Positions 37,533-50,956 of a stretch of DNA of 64,000 bases are shown in pieces (positions within the stretch are counted from its first letter, which is position 1; each line of letters starts with the position of its first letter). The notes beneath the pieces are model-generated. The model worked only from the letters and a program-made list of their open reading frames with translations. It made no database searches and was not told the DNA's origin. The stretch covers positions 26,674,118-26,738,117 of the forward strand of contig CM055112.1 of assembly GCA_029204225.1 (NCBI GenBank), in the 5' to 3' direction. The stretch is from Diphasiastrum complanatum (taxonomy: Eukaryota > Streptophyta > Lycopodiopsida > Lycopodiales > Lycopodiaceae). The position numbers and the translations under genes are program-made.

Positions 37533-37620
37533 TGCATTAGGGCCCTTTTTGGACTCAAACAGGGCCTCTTCCTTGCCTAAACAAGTTTTCTAATCATAAT
37601 TAATTTAGTGCTAATCAATC
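37533..37620 (+). repeat. Left terminal inverted repeat of copy A
   Basis: It matches the reverse complement of 50860-50956. The first 40 bp are near-perfect; further in, CTAATCATAATTAATTTAGTG pairs with CTAATTATAATTAGTG after a short gap. Confidence 0.85.
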
Positions 37621-38034
37621 CTACGTGGCACCTTTACCTTGGGTTACCATACAAGGTGAGCAAGAGTTAAGGCCTAAATGTAGGTCTCCTTTTCATAGAC
37701 TATTGTAGGTTATTTGCATAGACTATAATAGGCAAGTAATAGGTAAGTTACAAATTACAACTAGAGTAGGGTTAGTATAGGACGACCTTTCATTGTCCTA
37801 ACTACAATAGGACCCTAGGGATGGAAACTAGTATATGCCTAATAAAGCTTATATCATTGTTAGTTCACATTGAGCTTTGACACCATTTGATTAAGGTATA
37901 TTGTAATGTTCTACATAGATTCTTTTGGGAAATTTCATTACATGTATCACTTACATGTGAAGTTAGAGAAGGATTATGCGACCACCAAAGCTGCATGGGG
38001 TGTTAACTTAAATCCGTATGACATGCATTGTTAG

Positions 38035-40623
38035 AGATTAGAAGGAAAAAAACATATTGACCTATGGGTAAGAGGTGATTTATACCCTCATAATCCACTG
38101 GTAGATGCTCCTCCTAAATTTTCTAATGTACATAGTTTGTTAAGGTTCGTTGGGGATGGTCGGAATGGACTGCTTGGCTATTGTCAAGCAATGGATTCTC
38201 GAAGAATCCAAGCTGAGACATTGGCAAATACGACATTCATTCGTATCTTGAGTATGAATGACAATTTAAAGTCATTGCATGGAATAAATATGAAATTGGA
38301 GCAGGAGATAAATGGTTTGAAAATAGAGCTTGCCAGTTCTATCGCAAAAATTGAAGAATTGCAATCTTCAATCAGTATATTTCAGAGGACAATATATGGC
38401 TTACAACGAAAGCGTAGAGTCTCGATGGATCAGCAAGCAGAAAATGAAAACCCTAAGAGACACAAACTAGAAGCTTTGGCACCAGGTGGTGGTGCCAGTA
38501 AAAGACGTATGAGGGACACAAAAGAGTTCTTGAGAAAGACGGTTGGAAAAGATTTTATTACCGAAAAATATATGAAACATTTTTTGAAGGGTAAAGATTT
38601 GATTAAGATTGTGGAAGATGAAACAAGTGATTCAATTCACTTGAGAATTGCAAAAAAGCTAGTCGACAAGTTCAAGCCAAATCCAAATGTTAAAGAGATA
38701 GTGTACGCATGTGACCAAGGAGGTGTGAGTCGCAAGGGGTATAGAGCTTTGAAGAAGTATATGAAACGCTCTGACAAAATTGGGTTAAAACGCCATCAAA
38801 TAATACCTACTTATAAACTTGTTGAATCCGCCAAACGAGAATGCAATTCGATTTTGCTCTCTGAATTAGGAGAGTTTCAACATATTGAGGATTCTTTTAC
38901 AGTAACCAATAAGAAGAAAGGACCTCCGACAAAACAATTATCATCAAGGCAATAATATATTCTTAGATCTGGAAAAGGTCCAAGCGATGATGATCCGACA
39001 TTACGAAGTTAGAACAAATGGTAAGAACATTTATTGTGGATTTCGGTTTTCAATTGTATGCTTTTCTTCAACTAATATGTTTTTGTAATGAAATTTCTGT
39101 TTTACAGATTTGCAGAGGTAAAGTTATATTTGTTATTAAGTTGGACGAAGCAGAAATCGTAAAAGGGCATAAACTTGAACGTGTCACAATCACCTTGATG
39201 AATTGTGAATTGCAACAGTTTGGCGGAAGTTATTGTAAAGAATTTAGCGTGCAATCTGAAAACCACATATGGTGGATAGCTGCATTTGAAGTTCCTAAGG
39301 AGTCTCACGACGTACTGGAGTGGCTATTTGAAAAATGTAGTATATCTAAGATAATACATGCACAAAATGAAGGCAAATTGCTCAATGTTGAAGGAGAAAG
39401 CTTTGTTGTAGAATGGCACCTAGCTGCTGATTTGAAGACTTTGAAATGCATGTACGGTTCTGGTCTCGGTGCAAATGCAAAGAATTTTTGTATATATTAT
39501 ATGTTTGAATCTGGGCAGAACAAAAGCATTTTGAATTGCAACCAACGTCTTGCACCAAATAGGCACAATCTAGACAAAGCTTGGAAACTTGTGTTGAACA
39601 TTCCTCTCGAAAGAGTCCATTTTTGCACAATGCATGGTGAATTACGAATACTGGACAAATTATTATTTTTGCATTGTTGTTGCGCATGGAACATGCAGCC
39701 CAAATCAAGAGCAGATGTTAGCATTAAAAATCTAGAGATAATTTTATCCGATATGGGATTGCACGGGGGCCACGTGAGTCTTACCAAAGACGTTGAGATG
39801 AGTGGAAAAATGCAAGATCTTCCAGCAAAAGTTTCAATGGGTGGTGCAAAAGTGAGACACCTATTGTCAAATCATACTGCACGTGAAAGCAGTGTTGAAT
39901 GGGAGTACTGGAAGAAAATATGTCAATGCACAACAAATATGGGCTCAGATCCTCGCATGGCAAGTACACGTGCTAAGGTTTGGCAAGCATTTGATGTCTT
40001 GTCACAAACTATCAACAAAAAGATTGTGAGAGATGAAGATTTGGATAGATACGCAAGAGAAGTCAAAATATTTACTGAATTGATGATCGATGCATGGGGA
40101 GAAACACACGTAACTCACTATATGGTATGTGTGTCTCATATTTTTTACTTTTGTATTTATGTATTTGTAAAGATTTAAATTAATATGAAATTTCTATTAA
40201 TAGCACATCTTCTATGCTCATGGACCTTGGTTTATGAAAACCTATGGATCATTAACTATTTGGAATACGCAAGGCATGGAAAAGAGTCATTACAGGGCAA
40301 AGGCTACATATTTCAAAAATTCACGGCATGGCGGAGGAAAGGGTCGTAGCAATGCATTGGTTGAGATATTCCAATGGTTTTACAGAGGAGTTTTGGGCCG
40401 AGGACACTTTCAAAACACAAGAACTGAAGAGTTGTGTTCAATGATCCCCAATTCAAATTCAGTCAGAAAGACAGCATGGCAATCCTCTAATGCTAGAACA
40501 AGGCATCAAGAATGGAGGATGTCTAGAGTCCGATTTGGAAAGAGATGGATGCCGAGGACACCAACATCCAATGTTTTGGAAAACAGCGCTAGAGAAGCTA
40601 CGGAAACTGATGAGATGGAATAG
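38035..40623 (+). pseudogene. DDE-like transposase of copy A
   Basis: Exons are about 38035-39020, 39108-40124 and 40204-40623, with introns 39021-39107 (GTAAG...TTACAG) and 40125-40203 (GTATGT...TTAATAG). The N-terminal part has KKHIDLWVRGDLY, LLGYCQAMDSR, a coiled coil (about 38260-38410), a basic stretch and GGVSRKGYRALKKYMKR. The core has candidate acidic residues in IKLDEAE, WHLAADLKTL and TQGMEKSHY, plus HGELRILDKLL and NSRHGGG near the C-terminus. That spacing suggests a DDE enzyme with a large insertion, an inference. Two frameshifts around 38900-39000 break the first exon end. Related fragments occur at 27255-27783 and 61180-61700. Confidence 0.7.
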
Positions 40624-40751
40624 AAACAATTCATGTTGAATTGTAATTCGAATATTCCTTTGTGATAAATATTACTGCCGAACTGGATTGTTGTTGTAAA
40701 TAGAAATTGTTTTATTTGGTTTTATAATAATATCTATTTTTGAAAACACGT

Positions 40752-40763
40752 CCCTCTATATAA
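40752..40763 (+). promoter_or_regulatory. TATA box of the unknown gene in copy A
   Basis: CTCTATATAAGA lies about 125 bp before the ATG at 40888, at a normal distance for a plant core promoter. Confidence 0.6.
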
Positions 40764-41474
40764 GAGTGGGGTTTTCATTTTGTTGTCACTTCTTGCTTTG
40801 TTGAAATTTCTTTCCTCGTAATTTAGCTTGTCTTGTTCAATTAGACTACTAGTTTGCTGGTCAATTAGTGTTCTTAGTTGCATAACAATGTCGTCCTCTA
40901 AAATAGAGTTGGCCAATCTGCTAGCCCCCACAGAGTTTTTAGATTAGTTAGATCGTATTTATTGTATGTTTACCGGTAGAATAGACACGCTTGCCACTCT
41001 ACGGGCTAATACAGATGCATTCACGTACGTGAGTGAGTATATAGATGAAACTTTGAAGCCTTATGCCCTACAAATTCCTGACTCCACTATCATGTGGATT
41101 CCATATAACTTGCTTAGTTATATACGAAAAGGAGATAGACCCTTTATCGCTCGTCTCAACAGATTTATTAGTCACTTGGGTAACGATCATTACTTGGAGC
41201 TGACCAAGGATCAGCTGAAAACTTTTGATCTTAAAAGTGTAGGAAAGAAGTTTCTATCCGGTGAGATTACTGTTATTTTTTTTCTTAATGAATTTCCAGC
41301 GACTGTGGCTAGCAACAAACACAATCCTAGTGAGCAGGTGAACGAGATGAACGACCTAGGTGAAGAGGAAGATTTATCTGCAGAGCACGAAGCAGTCTTG
41401 GTTGCGCAAGAGGCAATAAGTCCTAAATATTCTTTGATGGTAAAAGCAAAATTAGACAAATATCTTGAACCTGG

Positions 41475-42283
41475 TGTTGAATTTCACACGTGTGGATTGT
41501 CCACTACATGTACTTGTGATCTCCTAAGGTGTGTAGATGCACCAAGATCAAGACTAGATTGAGATTCAAGATCTATCTTTGATTCTATGGCAAAAACACA
41601 CTACTACATGCATTCAATCACTTCCAACTCTCACTCACACGTGTGGGAAGTGTTCCAAAAGTATTCTAAGTAAAAACAAGCTGCTCTCCTCGGGTAGAGA
41701 GAGAAAAACCATCATGAGCTCTCGGGTAGAGAGAGAAAGCTAGAAATTCAATGACACTCAAAATCCACTCAATCTCAAAATCAATTAGATCCAAAAGGAG
41801 GAGTACAATGATACTAATAGATTCATGAGCTACCACTATGCTTAACTATGATTGGATCACACTTTGCCACTTCTTAATCCTATTGGACCATTGATCCATG
41901 CACCTCTAAATTCTATTGGACTATATTCAAGCACACTTCAATTTTCTATTGGACCTCACAAGGTTCCACCTCTAAATCCTATTGGACCTCTTAAGCTTCA
42001 TCAAACAAAAGCATGACACTTGTCTACACTCTAATTGGCACAAGTTTGGCTCAATATTGGCATTACAAGTGGAAATGGATAATTTGCCATCTATGCCAAA
42101 TTTGACCCTATCAACATCCTACACCTAAATGCTTGACTATGAAATTCTATGAGACCCCTATATCAAACATTTTGATTTACTTTACAATTGTCCACACGTG
42201 GGAACATCCTCCACACATGTGAGATTCACTTACAAACTTCTATCATAAAAAATATTAAGCTAGATTTTTGCCAATTTCTCACA
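41475..42283 (-). repeat. 3' LTR of Copia-3
   Basis: It is a direct repeat of 45741-46551. It contains CACACGTGTG near both ends (41485 and 41637) and repeated CTCTCGGGTAGAGAGAG motifs. Confidence 0.95.
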
Positions 42284-42409
42284 CTCCTCCTCAAAAAATA
42301 GCTTGGAAAGGTACTAGATCACTTGAGAAGTTTGTAAATCTTTTTGAGTGGATCATTTGGTATGCATAAGAAGTGAAGATCAGCCAAGGGATCCATCATA
42401 GCAGCACCC

Positions 42410-44983
42410 TTACCATATCCATGATAAGATCTCTTTGGTAGAGATCTCTTGCCAATGCCTTTGAAGAGTGCTCCACCAATATGCCACTATTATCATGGGC
42501 TTCCTCCATGCTTGATGATGATCTTTGCCTTGAAAGTTCCACTTGCATGATGGATGCACCATAAATAGAGAAATATGAGGCTTCCAAGCCTCATAAGGAT
42601 CATGGAGATCAAGATCATAAGATGTGAAACAATGATGATTATCAAGATTATGCTTTCTAGCTTGACTAGTCCACATACAATGAACTATATCCATGATGGA
42701 TCTAATCTTGATATCAAAGACTATCTTGATCTTTTTTAGGCTGGTTACTCTCTCAAGGATGTAAGTGTCCACTTTGGATGCTTCACTTAATCTCAAGAGG
42801 AGTTTACAATTTGCCTCAAAACATGTGAAAACATGATTTTCAAAAAAGTGAGTACCAAGCTCAATCTTGTTCTTACTAGAACCAAGAGCATACTTTTGAC
42901 AATACAATATCTTGCTTTTAAAAAGTATTGGAAACACATCTAAGTCAATAATGACAAGAAACATGTCCATACCATAAGCATCATACAAAACTAGTATAGC
43001 TTTTCTTGAACTTTGAGATCCAAAAAATTCAATGAAGCAAGATAGCATTTCAAGCAAAGGAAGAGAAGCATATATGAATGTGTTGTAGTAGATACCACAT
43101 GAAAGATGCCCCTCTTTGCCATGTAAGATGAGCCATAAAGACTCAGCCATGCATCTTGAAGATCTTCTTGAAATCATATGAATAAGAAACTCCTCCTCAC
43201 ACATTGGCCCCATCATAACTTGAATACCTTCAAAAAGGATAATTTGTGATGCTTCTTGAGAAGCCTTGATCTCGGCCACTTCCAAGATTGAATCTTCATG
43301 CAATATGACATCTCTATTCACCATCACATTTGAAATAGAGAGTGTAAAGACACTAAAGGTCTCCTTGATGGATGAGTATCCAATCATGATCCATGAGCTT
43401 GGATCATCCTTCCTTCTTGTTTCCAAGGGAATATGTGCAAAGCAAGCACTACCAAGTTCACTAAGGTGATCAACCTTAGGCTTCATCTTGAATAAAACTT
43501 CATATGGTGCTATTCCTTCAAGAGCTCCAATACTCCTAAAAGCTTTGATCTTCAATGAGAATTTCTTCTCAACATATGCTTTGAATAATAAGGAATAATC
43601 ATACACCATAATACTTGAAGAGAGAAGATATGTGCATCTTGTGTAATTTTCCTCCTTTGAAATATTGGAAATATAAGAAACATCAAGAGAGTTTGCACTC
43701 TCACTTGGATCCAATTTGTAGATGCCTTCAAATCTTGATCCATATGCAAGGATCTCACCATCCTTCTTAATCACACAATTGTCAATATTGAAATTGACAT
43801 CAAAGCCACTATCAAGAAGTTGGCCAACACTTAAGATGTTCTTTGTAAGCTTTGGGACAAAAAGAACATTGTTGAGAAAGAGATCTTTAGAAGATGCAAG
43901 CTTCAAGGGAATAATCCCTACTCCTTCAATATTGCACTCATGCTTACTTGCAAAGTATATGGTCTTCTTGACTCCATCATAAGGCATAATAGATGAAAAA
44001 AAGTGCTTGGAGCCACACATATGTGAAGATGCTCCACTATCAATATACCATGAGTCATCCTTGTTGAAGGTGGAAGAGGAGAAGCTTGATGCCATAAGAG
44101 AGCCTTCTCCATCACTTGCAATATAGTCTTCTTTCTCATTGGTGATGTTGGCTTGATTGAGTTGATTCTTCTTCTTGAAGCAATTGGTGGCATAATGGCC
44201 TTTCTTGCCACAATAAAAGCACTTGATCATCTTCTTCTTGAGATTTGAATTATAAGCATGAGAGGTATCCTCCTCCTCTCCATCTTGGTCTTTAGCTTTG
44301 TCATTAGAGAAATGATGGTGTTGCTTCTTACTCCTCTCTTTGTGCTTGGCAAATAGAACTTTGCCATCATCATGATTGAGTGATAGCTTGTCCATCCTCA
44401 AGAGTTTGTACTCTTGTCTTGATTCTTCAGAAATAAGCACACTTTGAAGGGCCTCCAAACTTGGTAGCTCCTCCTTAATAGCATAGGGCTGGACAAGGTT
44501 GTCATATTCATCTCTCAAGCCATTGAGAATGACTTGGACTAGCTCACTTTGATTGATTGAGTCACCAATACATGCAAGCTCCCTATGAATATCCTTGACC
44601 CTCAAAACATAATTAGATGCACTCTCGTCACTCTTTTGACTACTTTGGAATATTTGATTTCTAAGAGTGAGGAGCCTAGAGGTGTTCTTAGCCTCATAGA
44701 TGGACTTGAGACAATCCCAAGCTTCCTTGGATGTAGAACAATCACCAATCTCCCTCAATATCTCATTAGAGACATTCATCTTAATGTAGTGGAGAGCCAT
44801 CCTAGCTCTCTTCTTGTATTTTTGTACTTCTTGAAGGACTTGAGGCTCCTCCTCAATCCCAAGTACAATGTCCATCACATCTTGGAGTATCAAGATGGAC
44901 TCCATCCTCAATTTCCATATTGAATAATTGGAAGTAGACAATCTCTCACTTGGTTGCAACAAGTATGAACTCATTGAAGTCAT
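42410..44983 (-). CDS. gag-pol: Copia-3 gag-protease ORF, 857 codons, lacking integrase core and RT
   Basis: The ORF starts MTSMSSYLLQPSERLSTSNY and carries the UBN2-type copia gag core (residues 1-200), a perfect CCHC knuckle CFYCGKKGHYATNC (255-268), the protease active site WYIDSGASSHM (312-322), and the LTKNILSVGQLLDSGFDV block (379-395). The integrase zinc-binding module and catalytic core are missing, and the C-terminal integrase part resumes at about 485 (APYEVLFKMKPKVDHL to VMVNRDVILHED). The last 290 residues match no RT motif. Despite these deletions the frame stays open for its whole length, so the element may express Gag-protease and be mobilised in trans. Confidence 0.75.
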   Translation of the reverse strand: MTSMSSYLLQPSERLSTSNYSIWKLRMESILILQDVMDIVLGIEEEPQVLQEVQKYKKRARMALHYIKMNVSNEILREIGDCSTSKEAWDCLKSIYEAKNTSRLLTLRNQIFQSSQKSDESASNYVLRVKDIHRELACIGDSINQSELVQVILNGLRDEYDNLVQPYAIKEELPSLEALQSVLISEESRQEYKLLRMDKLSLNHDDGKVLFAKHKERSKKQHHHFSNDKAKDQDGEEEDTSHAYNSNLKKKMIKCFYCGKKGHYATNCFKKKNQLNQANITNEKEDYIASDGEGSLMASSFSSSTFNKDDSWYIDSGASSHMCGSKHFFSSIMPYDGVKKTIYFASKHECNIEGVGIIPLKLASSKDLFLNNVLFVPKLTKNILSVGQLLDSGFDVNFNIDNCVIKKDGEILAYGSRFEGIYKLDPSESANSLDVSYISNISKEENYTRCTYLLSSSIMVYDYSLLFKAYVEKKFSLKIKAFRSIGALEGIAPYEVLFKMKPKVDHLSELGSACFAHIPLETRRKDDPSSWIMIGYSSIKETFSVFTLSISNVMVNRDVILHEDSILEVAEIKASQEASQIILFEGIQVMMGPMCEEEFLIHMISRRSSRCMAESLWLILHGKEGHLSCGIYYNTFIYASLPLLEMLSCFIEFFGSQSSRKAILVLYDAYGMDMFLVIIDLDVFPILFKSKILYCQKYALGSSKNKIELGTHFFENHVFTCFEANCKLLLRLSEASKVDTYILERVTSLKKIKIVFDIKIRSIMDIVHCMWTSQARKHNLDNHHCFTSYDLDLHDPYEAWKPHISLFMVHPSCKWNFQGKDHHQAWRKPMIIVAYWWSTLQRHWQEISTKEILSWIW

Positions 44984-45728
44984 GTAAAGTGGAGATAAAT
45001 AAAAGTGATGAACAAAAAATGTTGCTTCTCTCTCACTATAGGATCCAATAATGGTGTGCTACCATCTCCTATGCAAGATCTTGCAACAAACTGTGAGATG
45101 ATTCTCACTAGCTATCTCAATCTCTCCAAAACTAGATCTACTTCACATCAAATGATGGAGTATGGGCAAAGTTAGGATCAAACACTCTTAGCACGTGTGA
45201 AATACACTAAGAAACCAAATTTGACTCAAATACAATGATATTGCATGAAACAAAATGGCTAAGATCTCAAAACAGTGCCTAGATCACATATAGATGAGAT
45301 TGGTAAGCATTCAACTGTGATTTTGGATCAAACAAGCAATCTTTTGACCAAACCAAATGTGTCCACCCAGGTCTAGGTGCCCTACCTAACCCTCTTCAAA
45401 AGCTTATAACTTTTGATTGGCTCAACCAAATGGAATGAAACTGATTGCATTAGAAACTAGACAAAAATAGCTTCAAAACAAGCTATCTAGCAAGATTTTT
45501 GGATCAAACATGAAAGAGAACTCCCAAACTGAAATTGGATGTTCCTCACACGTGTCTGAGCACCTGATTCCGCACAGTACCAGGTCAGACCCAATCAATG
45601 TCCTTTTGATCTCTTTTGATCCAAAATTGAACAAGATAGCTAGGAAAATGGGCCTTGACAATTTGTAGCTCAAGATTGATGAATAGTTTCTACTCAAATG
45701 GATCAAAATGCATGGTAACCTTAGGTAG

Positions 45729-45740
45729 GCTCTGATACCA
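45729..45740 (-). promoter_or_regulatory. Primer binding site of Copia-3
   Basis: The minus strand reads TGGTATCAGAGC, directly after the 5' LTR end. Confidence 0.95.
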
Positions 45741-46551
45741 TGTTGAATTTCACACGTGTGGATTGTCCACTACATGTACTTGTGATCTCCTAAGGTGTGT
45801 AGATGCACCAAGATCAAGACTAGATTGAGATTCAAGATCTATCTTTGATTCTATGGCAAAAACACACTACTACATGCATTCAATCACTTCCAACTCTCAC
45901 TCACACGTGTGGGAAGTGTTCCAAAAGTATTCTAAGTAGAAACAAGCTGCTCTCCTCTGGTAGAGAGAGAAAAACCATCATGAGCTCTCGGGTAGAGAGA
46001 GAAAGCTAGAAATTCAATGACACTCAAAATCCACTCAATCTCAAAATCAATTAGATCCAAAAGGAGGAGTACAATGATACTAATAGATTCATGAGCTACC
46101 ACTATGCTTAACTATGATTGGATCACACTTTGCCATCTCTTAATCCTATTGGACCATTGATCCATGCACCTCTAAATTCTATTGGACTATATTCAAGCAC
46201 ACCTCAATTTTCTATTGGACCTCACAAGGTTCCACCTCTAAATCCTATTGGACCTCTTAAGCTTCATCAAACAAAAGCATGACACTTGTCTACACTCTAA
46301 TTGGCACAAGTTTGGCTCAATATTGGCATTACAAGTGGAAATGGATAATTTGCCATCTATGCAAATTTGACCCTACTATCAACATCCTACACCTAAATGC
46401 TTGACTATGAAATTCTATGAGACCCCTATATCAAACATTTTGATTTACTTTACAATTGTCCACACGTGGGAACATCCTCCACACATGTGAGATTCACTTA
46501 CAAACTTCTATCATAAAAAATACCAAGCTAGATTTTTGCCAATTTCTCACA
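45741..46551 (-). repeat. 5' LTR of Copia-3
   Basis: It is the near-identical partner of 41475-42283. Confidence 0.95.
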
Positions 46552-46808
46552 CTTATGAGGATGAGGGAGATGCTCCTAAATTAGCATTAGAAATGTTAAA
46601 ACCAGTACTGTCATTAGAGAAGCGATCAGAGAAGCTGAAGTCCTCTCTGAAGGAAATGGATCAAAATAAAGATTTTGTCATTTTTTTTCTTGAGGACTCT
46701 CCTAATTCTCTGTTGTAATTATATGATGTGCTTATTCATTGAATTTAGAATTTAAATTTTTTTTCTAATAAAGATTTCTTTTCTTTTTTCCGTGGCGTGA
46801 TTTTCACA

Positions 46809-46850
46809 CCAGGGCGCGACCAGGGCCCATTTGACCAGGTCGCGCCCTGG
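46809..46850. terminator. GC-rich hairpin between convergent genes of copy A
   Basis: CCAGGGCGCGACC (46809-46821) and GGTCGCGCCCTGG (46838-46850) form a perfect 13-bp stem with a 16-base loop. GTGGCGTGATTTTCA-like direct repeats flank it. It sits in the 400-bp gap between the plus-strand gene ending at 46718 and the minus-strand gene ending at 47117, so a shared 3' end or insulating role is possible. The terminator label is an inference. Confidence 0.35.
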
Positions 46851-47116
46851 CGTGATTTTCATGCCACAACATGGAAACCTATCTTAGCTACAACATGGTT
46901 AAAGAAACTACCATTTCCATAGTACTGAAAATTTTAAATCACTGCATTCACATAGATGGTACTAAAATTTTCAAATGACAGCATTCACATAAACAATACT
47001 GAAATCAGATATTAAACTCAATCACAACAATTTGCATTCACATAATCTGAAATTCTGCAAGATACTTGACACCAAATCTTCAGTATATTATAAATAAAAT
47101 CATGTACATGATATTT

Positions 47117-48367
47117 TTAATTGCGCTCTCTCCTTAGCCTTCTAGCTAGGTGGAGATCCTTCGGGAGTATTGTGACTCTCTTCCCGTGCACTGCACACAA
47201 AAATGAGTCCTCAAAGAGCTGCATTAGGTATATTTCCGCAGACTCTTGTATTGCAGACACCGCATCTGCCGTAACTCTGTTTCCCAAGGAAAATTCATCG
47301 ACTATTTCTTTTACAAGCCTCACAAAAGGGGCCCTAGGGATCAAAAATTTTACGGACTTCTGATAGCTCTGTATATCCTGGAGCCACTTTGCGATCTTGC
47401 GCTGTCTACGCAATCGATGAGGTGGTGGCTGCATCCTGCGGAGCTCCTTTCCAGCCCATGGTGCTGCATGAGGGGCCGACCTACCCTTGCCACGCTCTAC
47501 GGTCCTACTTGGGCCAACTGCGGCAGAACTTGGAGGCGGTGGAGGTGGTGGAGGTGGAGGTGGTGGTGGTGGAGGTGGTGGAGGTGGTGGTGGTGGAGGT
47601 GGTGGTGGTGGAGGTGTTGGTGGAGGAGGTGGTGGAAGTGGTGGGGGCGGAGGCGGTGGAGGTGGAGGTGGTGGAGGCGATGTTGGCGGTGTGGGCAGTG
47701 GTGATGGCTGCTGAGCTGCAGGGTTCCGTCGCTTTCATGTAGAGCCTGCCTTGCGAGGATTCTTTCTCTTTCGCTCGTGTGCTCCTCTCTCTGACCATCT
47801 ATGGGTCGCCTTCTGCTTCATCCTTGTTGTGTGCGACATCGGGGTGCCCTCATCAGAACCACCCACCAACAACGACATCATCGGACCCATCACCGGGCCG
47901 TGACTTGGAGGTGACACGGTGGGTGTGGTGTCCCCCGATATGCCTAAATTTGATGTGTCCATGCCCATTGCTGGTGGAAATGGGTCGAAGAAAGAATCAT
48001 TCAGAACCGGCAACTCACCCGATGCCGCAAGCTCCTCATCTAGGAACTTCATTGTTTTCTCCCGCTCAGTTGCCGTCGGGGAAGGGCTTTTTTCTCGTGG
48101 TGGTTGTTGCTGCTGCTGGTCCTCCTGCTGCTGTTGGTCTTCTTGCTGCTGCTGCTCAGTCTGGTCCTCCTGTGTAGCTGCTGTATGGGCCATGTCCTCC
48201 TCAACTTCACGCTGAGTGGCCGGATCTTCCTGAGACGCTATAGGGCTACGACTCCTACTCCTGCTTCTGCTCTCCCGTCTCTCTCTCTCATCGAGGGTGG
48301 CTAGTGCATCCCTATGGAGCAATGCAGTCACTCTGGGATCTCTAGCCGTTTGTTTCGTCCGTGCCAT
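47117..48367 (-). pseudogene. Histone H3-like protein carried by transposon copy A (one TGA)
   Basis: On the minus strand a single frame of 416 codons runs from ATG 48367 to the stop at 47117, interrupted only by TGA at 47737-47735 (codon 211, probably an ancestral CGA). It begins MARTKQTARDPR, identical to histone H3 through Arg8 and then diverging, so K9, K14, K27 and K36 are absent. An RS-rich segment, a Gln-rich segment, basic HERKRKNPRKAGST and a proline run of about 45 follow. Residues 318-416 form a full H3 fold: IQSYQKSVKFLIPR (alpha-N), FVRLVKEIVDEF, AVSAIQESAEIYLMQLFED, AVHGKRVTILPKDLHLARR. Loop 1 has canonical H3 length, unlike most centromeric H3. There are no introns. A TATA box lies about 130 bp upstream. 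Confidence 0.88.
47532..47690. repeat. Proline-coding (CCACCT)n minisatellite in the H3-like gene
   Basis: GGTGGAGGTGG-type repeats (plus strand) encode the polyproline linker between tail and histone fold on the minus strand. The opposite-strand polyglycine frame is a by-product. Confidence 0.85.
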
Positions 48368-48491
48368 TTCCTCCAACATTGGTTAGCCTTTGAAAACGTA
48401 TCAGAGAACACGAGAGATGAAAAACAGAGAATTTAAAAAAACTGACACTCTGACACTCAAGGGATGAAGTGGAGAAATGAGGACCCAAGCA

Positions 48492-48503
48492 CCCTTATAT
48501 AGT
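48492..48503 (-). promoter_or_regulatory. TATA box of the H3-like gene
   Basis: The minus strand reads CACTATATAAGG about 130 bp before the ATG at 48367, a normal plant core promoter distance. It indicates the gene has its own promoter inside the transposon. Confidence 0.6.
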
Positions 48504-48995
48504 GAAGGGTTCTATTTCTAGTAAGTGCCCCTATAAAAGTTTTGGCCTCTTTTCCAAATATAGTATGTTCTTGTCTATGCTCATGAGTAAAAATCCTAAT
48601 CGCCAGTTAGCGGAAACCTTCAAAGAAAACCAGTAATAGTATTAAAATGCATATCACTAAACGATTTAAACCTTAACAAGTTTCAACCTTGGACATCCAC
48701 AAATGTAGTAACAGGCATATAAAATGTGACAACGCAAAATTAAAGTCAAAACATAACCAAATATATTAGAATAGAGTCAAAACGCAACCAACTAATTGTG
48801 TTTTCTATTTTTCATTAGATTAAATCCTTTATTCCCATTGGACTCCTAATGTCCCTGTTTGTAAAAATGAAACACATTCATGATCTTTTTTGGCTCGTCT
48901 CCGTATATGCAAAACCAAACACAAAGTTAATAATCCTATATTTATTCAACATTACTATTTAAAATTCAGGAATCTGATGGAAATTAGGGACTCAC

Positions 48996-50071
48996 ATTTT
49001 GTCCATTACGAGTAAAGACAAAATCTACTGGCACATCAACAAAAGTCAATCCAAGCATATGCCGAAGATCTTCTAGGCTGCACTCCTTATCTATTTGAAT
49101 TTCTCGTATTTCATCATGGGGCAAATGTATGGATATCTCCACTTCTTGTTGATTCGTCTCCGCATCCAGAGGGTCCCATCGGCCATGACCAAACTTATAT
49201 CACCTATAGATAAAACTTAAGGAGCATGTTTGACGTGAAATATGATACCTTATGGTCATTGTTTCACAAGAGAGCTTACACCTTATTAAATCTCCTTTAT
49301 GCTCCATTTCCTTTGAATCCCATGCGACAAATATGTTATCCAATAGTGATGATTCTGTTGCTTTCCATGCCCACATCGTGTTTGTTTTTCTAAAGGGGAC
49401 CGCCTTAAATATGGCAACAAATACGGTGATTGGCACAGAGATGCTAGTGTAGACTCGTTTGGATCCGAATGTTGGCTTCATATTACTAGTAATCTCTTTG
49501 AGAAGTTGCCTCTGCATTAATTCAATAGTCAGTTAGTCAACATATGGCCACTCGTGAGAATCGATCGCAGGCTCAGAAATTGGTGCTAATTTGCCTTGGC
49601 CAAAGTTTTTTTTTGGAACTTCGTACATGTGATCGTAAAAGAAAATGCCCATTTTGATCAGGGCAGAGGATGCCAACCCACCATATATTAGTTCTCCATA
49701 TTTGGCGTGTATGGCGGAGAATTTTCCAGTGAAGGACTTCACGTTTTGCCAGTCGAAGCTATTTGAAGGAAAGACATCTGCACCAGGCATTAATGCAACA
49801 TTATTATCCATAACAATGACATAATAATAATTCAAACATAATAGTTAACACAAGAATAAAAGAGGTGAGACCTACAATGTGACTGCATGGTTCTATCAGC
49901 AACAACCACATCCAATAAAATATCTCGACGCATGTATACGTGTTGCACATTTGCAAGGTATTCGCCGTTTTGGTCGATCTTGAATTCGTGGATCCTTCCT
50001 TTCCAATGGTAGTCTTGGTTGTTTCGCTTCCTCTTTGCAACCTTGTGAGTTCCTTTGCCCGATGGTTGCAT
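48996..50071 (-). pseudogene. Spliced BAH-like chromatin protein of copy A
   Basis: Minus-strand exons are 50071-49876, 49777-49249 and 49203-48996, with donors T/GTAGGT, AAG/GTATCA and AAT/GTGAGT; reading phases match across both inner junctions. The protein starts MQPSGKGTHKVAKRKRN. It then shows a BAH-like series: GRIHEFKIDQNGEYLANVQ, VYMRRDIL, VFPSNSFDWQNVKSFTGKF and FFYDHMYEVPKKNF, corresponding to the RpeD, F-S-xYD-I-GKC and FFCRFDY blocks of plant BAH proteins. BAH domains bind nucleosomes or modified H3 tails. The C-terminal exons (EISIHLPHDEIREIQIDKE, VPVDFVFTRNGQNV) look beta-grasp-like but unassigned. Nonsense codons are TAA 49535-49533 and TGA 49202-49200. A short last exon probably follows. 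Confidence 0.55.
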
Positions 50072-50554
50072 GTAAACTCAGTCAAAAGTTGAAAATGTAT
50101 GGGGCGTACTCTAAGCTATCTCTGAGCGACTAAAAATAAGTCTGAATTAAGCACAATGCTGATAAGCAGTAAGCGCAATAGCAATCTCTAATCAACTCTA
50201 ACGAAATTAGCTAGAATGCTCAAGAGTGTCCAAGCTCGCAAACTTGAGAGAGAACGCTAACTATTCAATACTTGATGATTGATCTTCATCCTTGAGATGT
50301 AGAATATAAATAGCTATTAATACTAAGCAATTAGACCATCAAATGCATCATCCAGTTGGCTGTGATGTGTTTGCATCCATCTAGTTAGGACTTTGATGTG
50401 TGCAACAATGGAAGCTAGTTGATTCTTGGGCTTCCTTGATTGAGTAGAGGCCATAATGGATGATGTAATGATAATGTAGGATATGCGAAATAGTGTGTAG
50501 ATCTTCAGATAAGGTGAACCAAAATAAAAAAAATAGAATATTTGTGGAGTATAC

Positions 50555-50560
<6 letters not shown>

Positions 50561-50629
<69 letters not shown>
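50561..50629. repeat. (AG)n microsatellite
   Basis: A run of about 34 units near the right end of copy A, followed by a repeat of its flank TACAAAATGAGAGAG. Confidence 0.98.
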
Positions 50630-50631
<2 letters not shown>

Positions 50632-50859
50632 ACAAAATGAGAGAGAGATGAGGGATACAAGCTTGTGAACATTCAAAATTTGAAATAAGGACTAGGCTCA
50701 CTTAGGATATGGCTGCTAGTAGATAGACAGGCTAGTTGATGTTAACTTGTAGGCATAGTTATTGCTTTATCTAGGGTTAATGTTAGAGGTGTACTTTGTG
50801 GGCCCACGCTTGATTTAATCTGCACCATTGAATTTGCCATGTCATATGGACCATTCTCT

Positions 50860-50956
50860 CTCAGTTATCAATATTTTATTGGGACACGTGTCGTCATTAA
50901 CACTAATTATAATTAGTGAAGAGGCCCTTTTTGAGTCCAAAAAGGGCCCTAATGCA
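50860..50956 (-). repeat. Right terminal inverted repeat of copy A
   Basis: It is the inverse of 37533-37620 (see there). The outermost bases on the plus strand are GGGCCCTAATGCA. Confidence 0.85.

What the first reader, a model, noticed from the sequence alone, without database searches (positions are those of the whole stretch)
47117..48367. A DNA transposon encoding its own histone H3-like protein with an ARTKQTAR tail
Seen: a single minus-strand frame starts MARTKQTAR, identical to the H3 N-terminus, and ends with a complete H3 histone fold, separated by RS-, Q- and P-rich insertions. It lies between near-identical inverted termini beside a DDE-like transposase. Known: ARTKQTAR with free K4 is what PHD, chromodomain and SET-associated readers recognise; K79 context and K9/K27 are lost here. 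Inference: the element may put a decoy or marking histone on its own chromatin, or use the tail to recruit host readers. Histone capture by a plant DNA transposon is, as far as I know, not a described class.
Basis: partly seen in the sequence, partly recalled or inferred. Interest (0 to 1): 0.95.

Follow-up and report, generated by a model that had tools for sequence, protein, structure and literature searches.

The report
Plant transposon carrying its own histone
A clubmoss genome holds hundreds of copies of a jumping gene that carries, beside its transposase, a remodelled histone H3 keeping only the ARTKQTAR tip of the tail and the histone fold; selection has kept both, so the transposon seems to use a histone of its own, though how is unknown.

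The parts
37535..37571 (+). left terminal inverted repeat, CATTAGGGCCC...GGGCCTCTTC
   Evidence: its 36-bp core occurs 831+808 times in the genome at <=2 mismatches, reversed-pattern control 0
38035..38955 (+). RAG1/Transib-like transposase gene, N-terminal open stretch (coiled coil, CDQGGVSRKGY region); its exact start and the join to the next exon were not settled
   Evidence: majority frame open
39108..40124 (+). transposase catalytic exon: first D (IKLDE), second D (AADLKTLKC) and C..C (here FCIYY; majority of copies FCIYC), ends THYM
   Evidence: (68 protein relatives); fold of the relative P0014 matches RAG1/Transib
40204..40623 (+). transposase C-terminal exon with H..H and the candidate third acidic residue (QGMEKSHY)
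40888..41474 (+). ORF2, 5' part (unknown function; one stop in this copy)
   Evidence: subfamily-B homologue 59% over 136 aa; no Pfam family above its cut-off
41475..46551 (-). Copia LTR retrotransposon inserted in the element, with loss of about 820 bp of the element there; LTRs 41475-42283 and 45741-46551
   Evidence: absent from the duplicate L009
46552..46720 (+). ORF2, 3' part
46792..46867 (.). 33-bp inverted repeat between the convergent ORF2 and H3-like genes (possible two-way terminator)
   Evidence: RNA fold -56.7 kcal/mol, z -8.4
47117..48367 (-). H3-like gene (412 aa in L030); TGA at 47735-47737 in this copy
48341..48367 (-). N-terminal tail codons MARTKQTAR
   Evidence: exact in 16 of 35 alignable copies and in the majority frame; exact in subfamily B copies L079 and L080 with 4 synonymous and 0 nonsynonymous differences from L030
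47120..47395 (-). H3 histone fold (92 residues)
   Evidence: purifying selection between subfamilies
48493..48503 (-). TATA-like box (CTATATAAGGG) upstream of the H3-like gene, also present upstream of the subfamily-B copy L055
   Evidence: sequence; L055; no promoter test was run
48984..50071 (-). ORF4 (unknown function; intron about 49779-49875; one stop in this copy)
   Evidence: 54-73% identical by piece in the subfamily-B locus, pN/pS 0.31 over 171 codons
50918..50954 (-). right terminal inverted repeat

Best explanation
Shown: this is one decayed copy of a TIR DNA transposon family of a clubmoss (7.8-9.1 kb in five complete copies; the window copy is 13.4 kb because of Copia). The family encodes a RAG1/Transib-like DDE transposase, two proteins of unknown function (ORF2, ORF4) and a chimeric H3-like protein: MARTKQTAR, an RS-rich and Q-rich stretch, a conserved GP(V/I)MGPMMSLLVG motif, basic and polyproline stretches, then an H3 fold. 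In the intact copy L030, K4 is the only lysine of the first 93 residues, so K9, K14, K18, K23, K27 and K36 have no counterpart; K79 is serine. The fold, and as far as nine codons can tell the tail, were kept by purifying selection over a span long enough to saturate synonymous sites. Inferred: the protein pairs with H4 (H3 C110, H113, D123, L126 and R129 are kept) and is placed on element or target chromatin. There it shows the K4 reader and writer platform but cannot take H3K9 or H3K27 methylation, so it helps the element stay transcribed or accessible, or guides its transposase complex. The identity part I hold at about 0.95 and the anti-silencing mechanism alone at about 0.3; the number below is for the whole statement, a histone that acts in chromatin in one of these two ways.
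For: 331 first-look candidates for the fold, 40 scored, 40 full length at 95-100%; 1,639 terminal repeats, control 0. In 20 fetched copies (not all independent: L011/L012 and L013/L017 are near-identical, L009 is the window's own insertion) ORF2 and transposase sequence are beside the histone in 20, ORF4 in 16; a TIR was found at both ends in 5, one end in 9, none in 6 (several fetched stretches end short of the expected terminus). Majority frame of 49 mapped copies open with MARTKQTAR; L030 and L061 are uninterrupted frames with the exact tail. Subfamilies A and B at 57-68% fold identity keep the tail where it was read (A MAHTKQTTR once; B MARTKQTAR twice, MAHTKQTAR once), and one locus of each keeps a 92% TIR; the B locus L055 is also flanked by recognisable ORF4, ORF2 and transposase. 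Fold pS 0.82-1.02 against pN 0.20-0.26 between subfamilies; bootstrap pN/pS 0.15-0.40 for five pairs. Tail of B against C: 4 synonymous, 0 nonsynonymous. TE histones form one clade, 98/98. Key H3 residues kept.
Against: Inside the young subfamily the replacement/silent ratio is near neutral (private 267/100, shared 79/40; one-sided Fisher p=0.11; fold alone p=0.19, tail region p=0.56): most copies read are dead, and 1 of 40 was intact. Within A the fold pair has pS 0.11, pN 0.07. Tail evidence outside subfamily C rests on four copies; L055 and L076 lack a tail, and stretches L077 and L078 did not contain one. In A the tail reads MAHTKQTTR (H3 R2 and A7 changed). No expression, binding or nucleosome data. 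R49, R63 and K79 are changed. The AF2 model of the fold was too poor to use (pLDDT 55). No Pfam reader domain was found in ORF2 or ORF4.
Confidence: 0.45

Rival explanations
1. Passenger (transduplication): the element captured an H3 gene by accident and amplified it; the histone does nothing for the element, as in Pack-MULEs or the fungal hAT cases.
For: Most copies read are broken and recent variation looks neutral. H3 capture by hAT with mass decay is published (PMC6710886, PMC3538342).
Against: Fold pN/pS 0.15-0.40 across subfamilies with saturated silent sites, like the element's own ORF4 (0.31); exact tail with only silent changes between B and C; a linker motif recognisable in three subfamilies.
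Confidence: 0.12
2. Transposase co-factor: the H3-like protein acts inside the transposition complex, for example as a DNA-bending H3-H4 unit or as a nucleosome-docking part that steers insertion, rather than changing silencing.
For: The transposase is RAG1/Transib-like; in RAG systems the partner RAG2 carries a PHD finger, and the sea urchin RAG2L PHD binds the H3 tail methylated at K4 (PMC7204232, passages), so a link between RAG1-like enzymes and the H3 K4 tail exists. The four genes stay together in many copies and in subfamily B.
Against: No PHD or other reader found by Pfam in ORF2 or ORF4; no interaction data.
Confidence: 0.25
3. Soluble decoy: the ARTKQTAR tip occupies host K4 readers or writers (a histone mimic) and the fold is only a stabiliser.
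Against: The fold is under selection and keeps residues of the H3-H3' and H4 contacts, which a decoy would not need.
Confidence: 0.12
4. A host H3-like gene that happens to lie between two termini.
For: Three D. complanatum proteins of this family are annotated as ordinary genes (hypothetical proteins).
Against: Hundreds of candidate places, with element genes beside those fetched; host H3 is a separate set, 13 full-length genes at 97-99% identity to canonical H3 among the matches scored.
Confidence: 0.01

Closest known systems
Histone H3 transduplication in fungal hAT transposons (Pyrenophora tritici-repentis H3L; Pseudocercospora fijiensis and relatives)
   Same: A TIR DNA transposon carries an H3-derived gene beside a transposase (and in Pyrenophora a further ORF) and amplifies it; 784 H3-like sequences in 471 elements of P. 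fijiensis (PMC6710886 abstract and passages, PMC3538342 passages).
   Different: hAT transposase and, in P. fijiensis, 8-bp TSD there; RAG1/Transib-like transposase and no TSD seen here. P. fijiensis copies are mostly truncated and RIP-inactivated, the Pyrenophora event very recent; here the gene is a chimera of about 400 aa with a conserved tail, linker motif and fold, selected over saturated silent divergence, in a plant.
Transib / RAG-like (ProtoRAG, RAGL) transposons
   Different: No 5-bp TSD seen, terminus CATTAGG rather than a heptamer-like end, no RAG2L-like gene recognised, no Pfam match, plant host; a passage of PMC7204232 lists protostomes, cnidarians, fungi and echinoderms as hosts of Transib. 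The extra genes here are an H3-like protein, ORF2 and ORF4.
Pack-MULEs and other plant transduplications (mentioned in passages of PMC6710886 and PMC3538342)
   Same: Host gene sequence carried between TIRs.
   Different: Here the cargo sits beside a transposase gene, has a TATA-like box upstream, and is conserved across subfamilies.
Viral histones, e.g. bracovirus H4 and giant-virus histones (recalled, not searched)
   Same: Mobile or viral genomes that encode a modified core histone.
   Different: Different histone, host and vehicle.

Membership tests
Histone H3 family | H3-type histone fold | tested here: met
   Pfam Histone E=7e-29; the 60 PDB matches shown are H3, H3-like or histone-domain; 48 of 88 aligned residues of L030 identical to host H3
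Histone H3 family | ARTKQTAR N-terminus | tested here: met
   majority frame of 49 copies; subfamily B copies L079 and L080
Histone H3 family | canonical tail lysines K9, K14, K18, K23, K27, K36 | tested here: not met
   only K4 is kept; next lysine at 94 in L030
CENH3 (centromeric H3) | longer loop 1 and grouping with CENH3 in a tree | tested here: not met
   no loop-1 insertion in the alignment; TE clade 98/98 apart from CENH3, though the deeper branches are weakly supported (reference sequences recalled)
TIR DNA transposon | terminal inverted repeats on many dispersed copies and an RNase H-like transposase | tested here: met
   (the fold was tested on the relative P0014, not on the window's protein)
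RAG/Transib superfamily | RAG1-like RNase H core with split zinc site | tested here: met
RAG/Transib superfamily | 5-bp target-site duplication | tested here: not met
   none in 9 elements by eye (L069 has a 3-bp match); empty site of L069: 40 of 4,664 candidates scored, 27 cover the whole joined sequence, 21 of them with exactly its length
RAG/Transib superfamily | heptamer-like termini (CACAGTG type, recalled) | tested here: not met
   CATTAGG in the termini read in full
hAT elements with captured H3 | hAT transposase and 8-bp TSD | tested here: not met
CACTA/Mirage/Chapaev (CMC) | transposase homology | tested here: inconclusive
   no Pfam match above cut-off; no such structure appeared among the structure matches shown; PMC4411706 places Chapaev in the Transib superfamily (passage)

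The most novel reading that the evidence does not exclude
A RAG1-like plant transposon that joins DNA without target-site duplication and encodes a silencing-proof histone: an H3 stripped of K9 and K27 but keeping K4, which the element loads on its own or its target chromatin to escape H3K9/H3K27 methylation and to be read as active.
Probability: 0.22. Interest if true: 0.95.

Novelty: new variant of a known kind. Interest (0 to 1): 0.8.

Why it matters
Transposons are controlled largely through marks on H3 tails. An element that has carried, reshaped and kept its own H3 under selection, with only the K4 segment of the tail left, makes a direct test possible of whether a transposon can supply its own chromatin. 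It also places a RAG1/Transib-like transposase in a land plant together with an H3 K4 tail, a pairing that recalls the RAG2 PHD-H3K4 link. And it appears to insert without a target-site duplication, which would be unusual for this fold.

Tried and rejected
Rejected: host gene by coincidence; CENH3 capture; an intron explaining the TGA (copies such as L013, L014, L019 and L020 read through that place with a serine codon; majority frame open); a TGCA 4-bp TSD, my first guess (other copies lack TGCA). Led nowhere: scans of viral contigs and of bacterial/archaeal contigs (28, 24 and 35 pattern matches, none confirmed); tail search of the protein database (2,225 candidates, none at E<=1); PDB sequence search with the transposase profile (one match, E=2.8); Pfam on ORF2 and ORF4; AF2 of the H3 fold with 6 sequences (pLDDT 55, not used); selection test inside the young subfamily (p=0.11). 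The IQ-TREE codon run gave a tree but no omega value was printed, so only Nei-Gojobori counts are used. Dropped rows: one search left out 5 of 49 copies (L012, L017, L032 and L035 as near-duplicates, L009 as the same insertion as the window); L023 was left out of the H3 gene counts because I fetched it with a wrong start. Not done: a second empty-site test and a genome count of tails, because the genome search was busy at each attempt.

Full report
OBSERVATION. The minus-strand frame 48367..47117 reads MARTKQTAR, RS-rich, Q-rich and P-rich stretches, then a full H3 fold. Pfam Histone scores E=7e-29 on the fold half; of 185 PDB sequences matched, the 60 shown are H3, H3-like or histone-domain entries. 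One correction: codon 211 is TGA (47735-47737). Copies such as L013, L014, L019 and L020 have a serine codon there (L009, the same insertion as the window, has the stop too), and the majority frame of 49 mapped copies is open from MARTKQTAR to the end, so the stop belongs to this insertion and no intron is needed.

THE ELEMENT. CATTAGGGCCCTTTTTGGACTCAAAnAGGGCCTCTTC stands at 37535-37571 and, inverted, at 50918-50954 (37 bp, one mismatch). Between them lie a transposase gene (+), ORF2 (+), a Copia element, the H3-like gene (-) and ORF4 (-). The Copia element (41475-46551, an LTR at each end) lies in ORF2, where about 820 bp of the element are missing. The duplicate L009, with the same flanks about 103 kb away in inverted orientation, lacks Copia and is 9.07 kb; five complete copies are 7.8-9.1 kb.

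GENOME. The window lies in a 1.745-Gb genome of 5,176 contigs. Its contig C7 has the same length (75,135,216) as the contig of a D. complanatum protein found by homology (P0003), so the source is taken to be Diphasiastrum complanatum, Lycopodiales; the contig lengths given for P0001 and P0002 differ slightly from C5 and C13. The fold gives 331 candidates by DNA; 40 were scored and 40 match over 318 of 318 bases at 95-100%. The 36-bp terminal pattern occurs 831+808 times at up to 2 mismatches and 0+0 times when read backwards. Of 20 copies fetched at about 10 kb, 20 have ORF2 and at least part of the transposase (19 in the window's order and orientation, L023 with an inversion), 16 have ORF4 (in L016 only a short piece, inverted with the right end); a terminus was found at both ends in 5, at one end in 9, at none in 6, several of these because the fetched stretch ended short of the expected terminus. 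These 20 are not all independent: L009 is the window's own insertion, and L011/L012 and L013/L017 are near-identical. Internally deleted 1.0-1.1-kb forms with both termini also exist (L069, L070). Host H3 is a separate set: 13 full-length uninterrupted genes at 97-99% identity to canonical H3 among 150 scored of 6,060 candidates.

THE TAIL. Of 40 copies (window and 39 others), 35 have an alignable tail and 16 of these read MARTKQTAR exactly; the majority codon is that of MARTKQTAR at each of the nine positions. L030 is an uninterrupted 412-aa frame with the exact tail, the only one of the 40; L061, from a second batch of 13 non-host copies, is another; L049 is open but reads MAWTKQTAR and has lost its stop. 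In L030 K4 is the only lysine of the first 93 residues.

SUBFAMILIES. A genome search with the L053 fold (150 of 5,288 candidates scored) shows a graded family. Subfamily A (L053, L076) and subfamily B (L055, L075) have folds 57-68% identical to the main one or to each other where compared. The L055 locus is flanked by ORF4 (pieces of 54-73% aa identity), ORF2 (59% over 136 aa), a transposase end (54% over 91 aa) and a 92% terminus; L053 by a 92% terminus. Tails: L053 MAHTKQTTR; L075 MAHTKQTAR; L079 and L080 MARTKQTAR. L055 and L076 have no tail, and the short stretches L077 and L078 did not contain one. A linker motif, GP(V/I)MGPMMSLLVG, is recognisable in copies of all three subfamilies, with one or two changes in some.

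SELECTION. Within the young subfamily (44 copies after dropping 5) private changes are 267 N: 100 S (neutral expectation 2.81) and shared ones 79: 40; one-sided Fisher p=0.11 with stops counted as replacements, so no significant selection is seen there; by region p is 0.19 (fold), 0.56 (tail), 0.07 (middle), 0.93 (link). Between subfamilies, fold pS is 0.82-1.02 and pN 0.20-0.26 in eight pairs, with differences at codon positions 1/2/3 such as 34/11/66; bootstrap limits of pN/pS for five pairs lie between 0.15 and 0.40. Inside A and B the single pairs give pS 0.11, pN 0.07 and pS 0.29, pN 0.07. ORF4, a gene of the element proper, gives 0.31 between C and B. The nine tail codons of B (L079, L080) and C (L030) differ at four places, all silent; against A (L053) there are replacements too. 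Decay after insertion should only raise pN, so I take the constraint on the fold as real; for the tail the sample is small.

FOLD. In a 15-row tree the TE folds form one clade (98/98) whose sister is unclear; identity is 49-53% to host H3 and 43-51% to plant CENH3 (reference sequences typed from recall). H3 C110, H113, K115, R116, T118, K122, D123, L126, R128 and R129 are kept; R49, R63 and K79 are changed. H4 pairing is therefore expected but not shown. The AF2 model of the fold is too poor to use.

MECHANISM. Best reading, inferred: a selected, element-encoded H3 that pairs with H4, shows the K4 platform and offers no K9, K27 or K36, and so keeps element chromatin readable and hard to silence, or guides the transposase complex. 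Steps shown: gene, copies, selection on the fold, residues. Steps not shown: expression, H4 binding, location, effect on silencing. Rivals are a pure transposase co-factor (0.25), passenger (0.12) and soluble decoy (0.12).

KNOWN WORK. H3 captured by a TIR DNA transposon is published for fungi: H3L beside a hAT transposase and a central ORF in Pyrenophora tritici-repentis, with ESTs (PMC3538342, passages), and 784 H3-like sequences in hAT elements of Pseudocercospora fijiensis, inactivated by RIP, with a similar event in five further genomes (PMC6710886, abstract and passages). This finding is thus a new variant: plant host, RAG1-like enzyme, chimeric protein with only the tail tip, long-term selection, no duplication seen. 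I saw no plant case in the listings of the four literature searches that returned; eight others failed, so absence from print is not established.

Noticed in passing
L052 (G000:C7:61150800-61152300; a second match at C7:61.42 Mb) and L051 (G000:C8:18045900-18047100): Other H3-like genes outside the TE clade: L052 begins MARTKQIARPKST (one stop inside the fold), L051 begins MDRKKQTRR; both lack the usual LARRIRG end. They could be centromeric H3 or a second captured H3.
   Followed up: partly
window 46792-46867: 33-bp inverted repeat (RNA fold z -8.4) between two convergent genes of the element; perhaps a two-way terminator.
   Followed up: partly
window 37535-50954 and L009 (G000:C21:26566465-26576364): The same insertion occurs twice, about 103 kb apart and inverted, one with and one without Copia: a duplicated stretch, or a haplotype placed twice in the assembly.
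   Followed up: partly
L023 (G000:C3:933869-943168) and L016 (G000:C19:11021182-11031081): Copies with internal inversions: in L023 the left half (terminus, transposase, part of ORF2) is inverted relative to the right half; in L016 the right end is inverted.
   Followed up: no
L069 and L070: Internally deleted 1.1- and 1.0-kb forms with both termini; the genome has 1,639 termini, so such short forms may be many.
   Followed up: partly
P0006-P0073: Relatives of the transposase are mostly unnamed metagenome proteins with no precomputed Pfam domain; their hosts, and whether a histone gene lies beside them, could not be checked here.
   Followed up: no
window 48984-49199: ORF4 ends in a stretch (EIREIQIDKECSLEDLRHMLGLTFVDVPVDFVFTRNGQ) that looks ubiquitin- or PB1-like by eye only; no Pfam match.
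   Followed up: no
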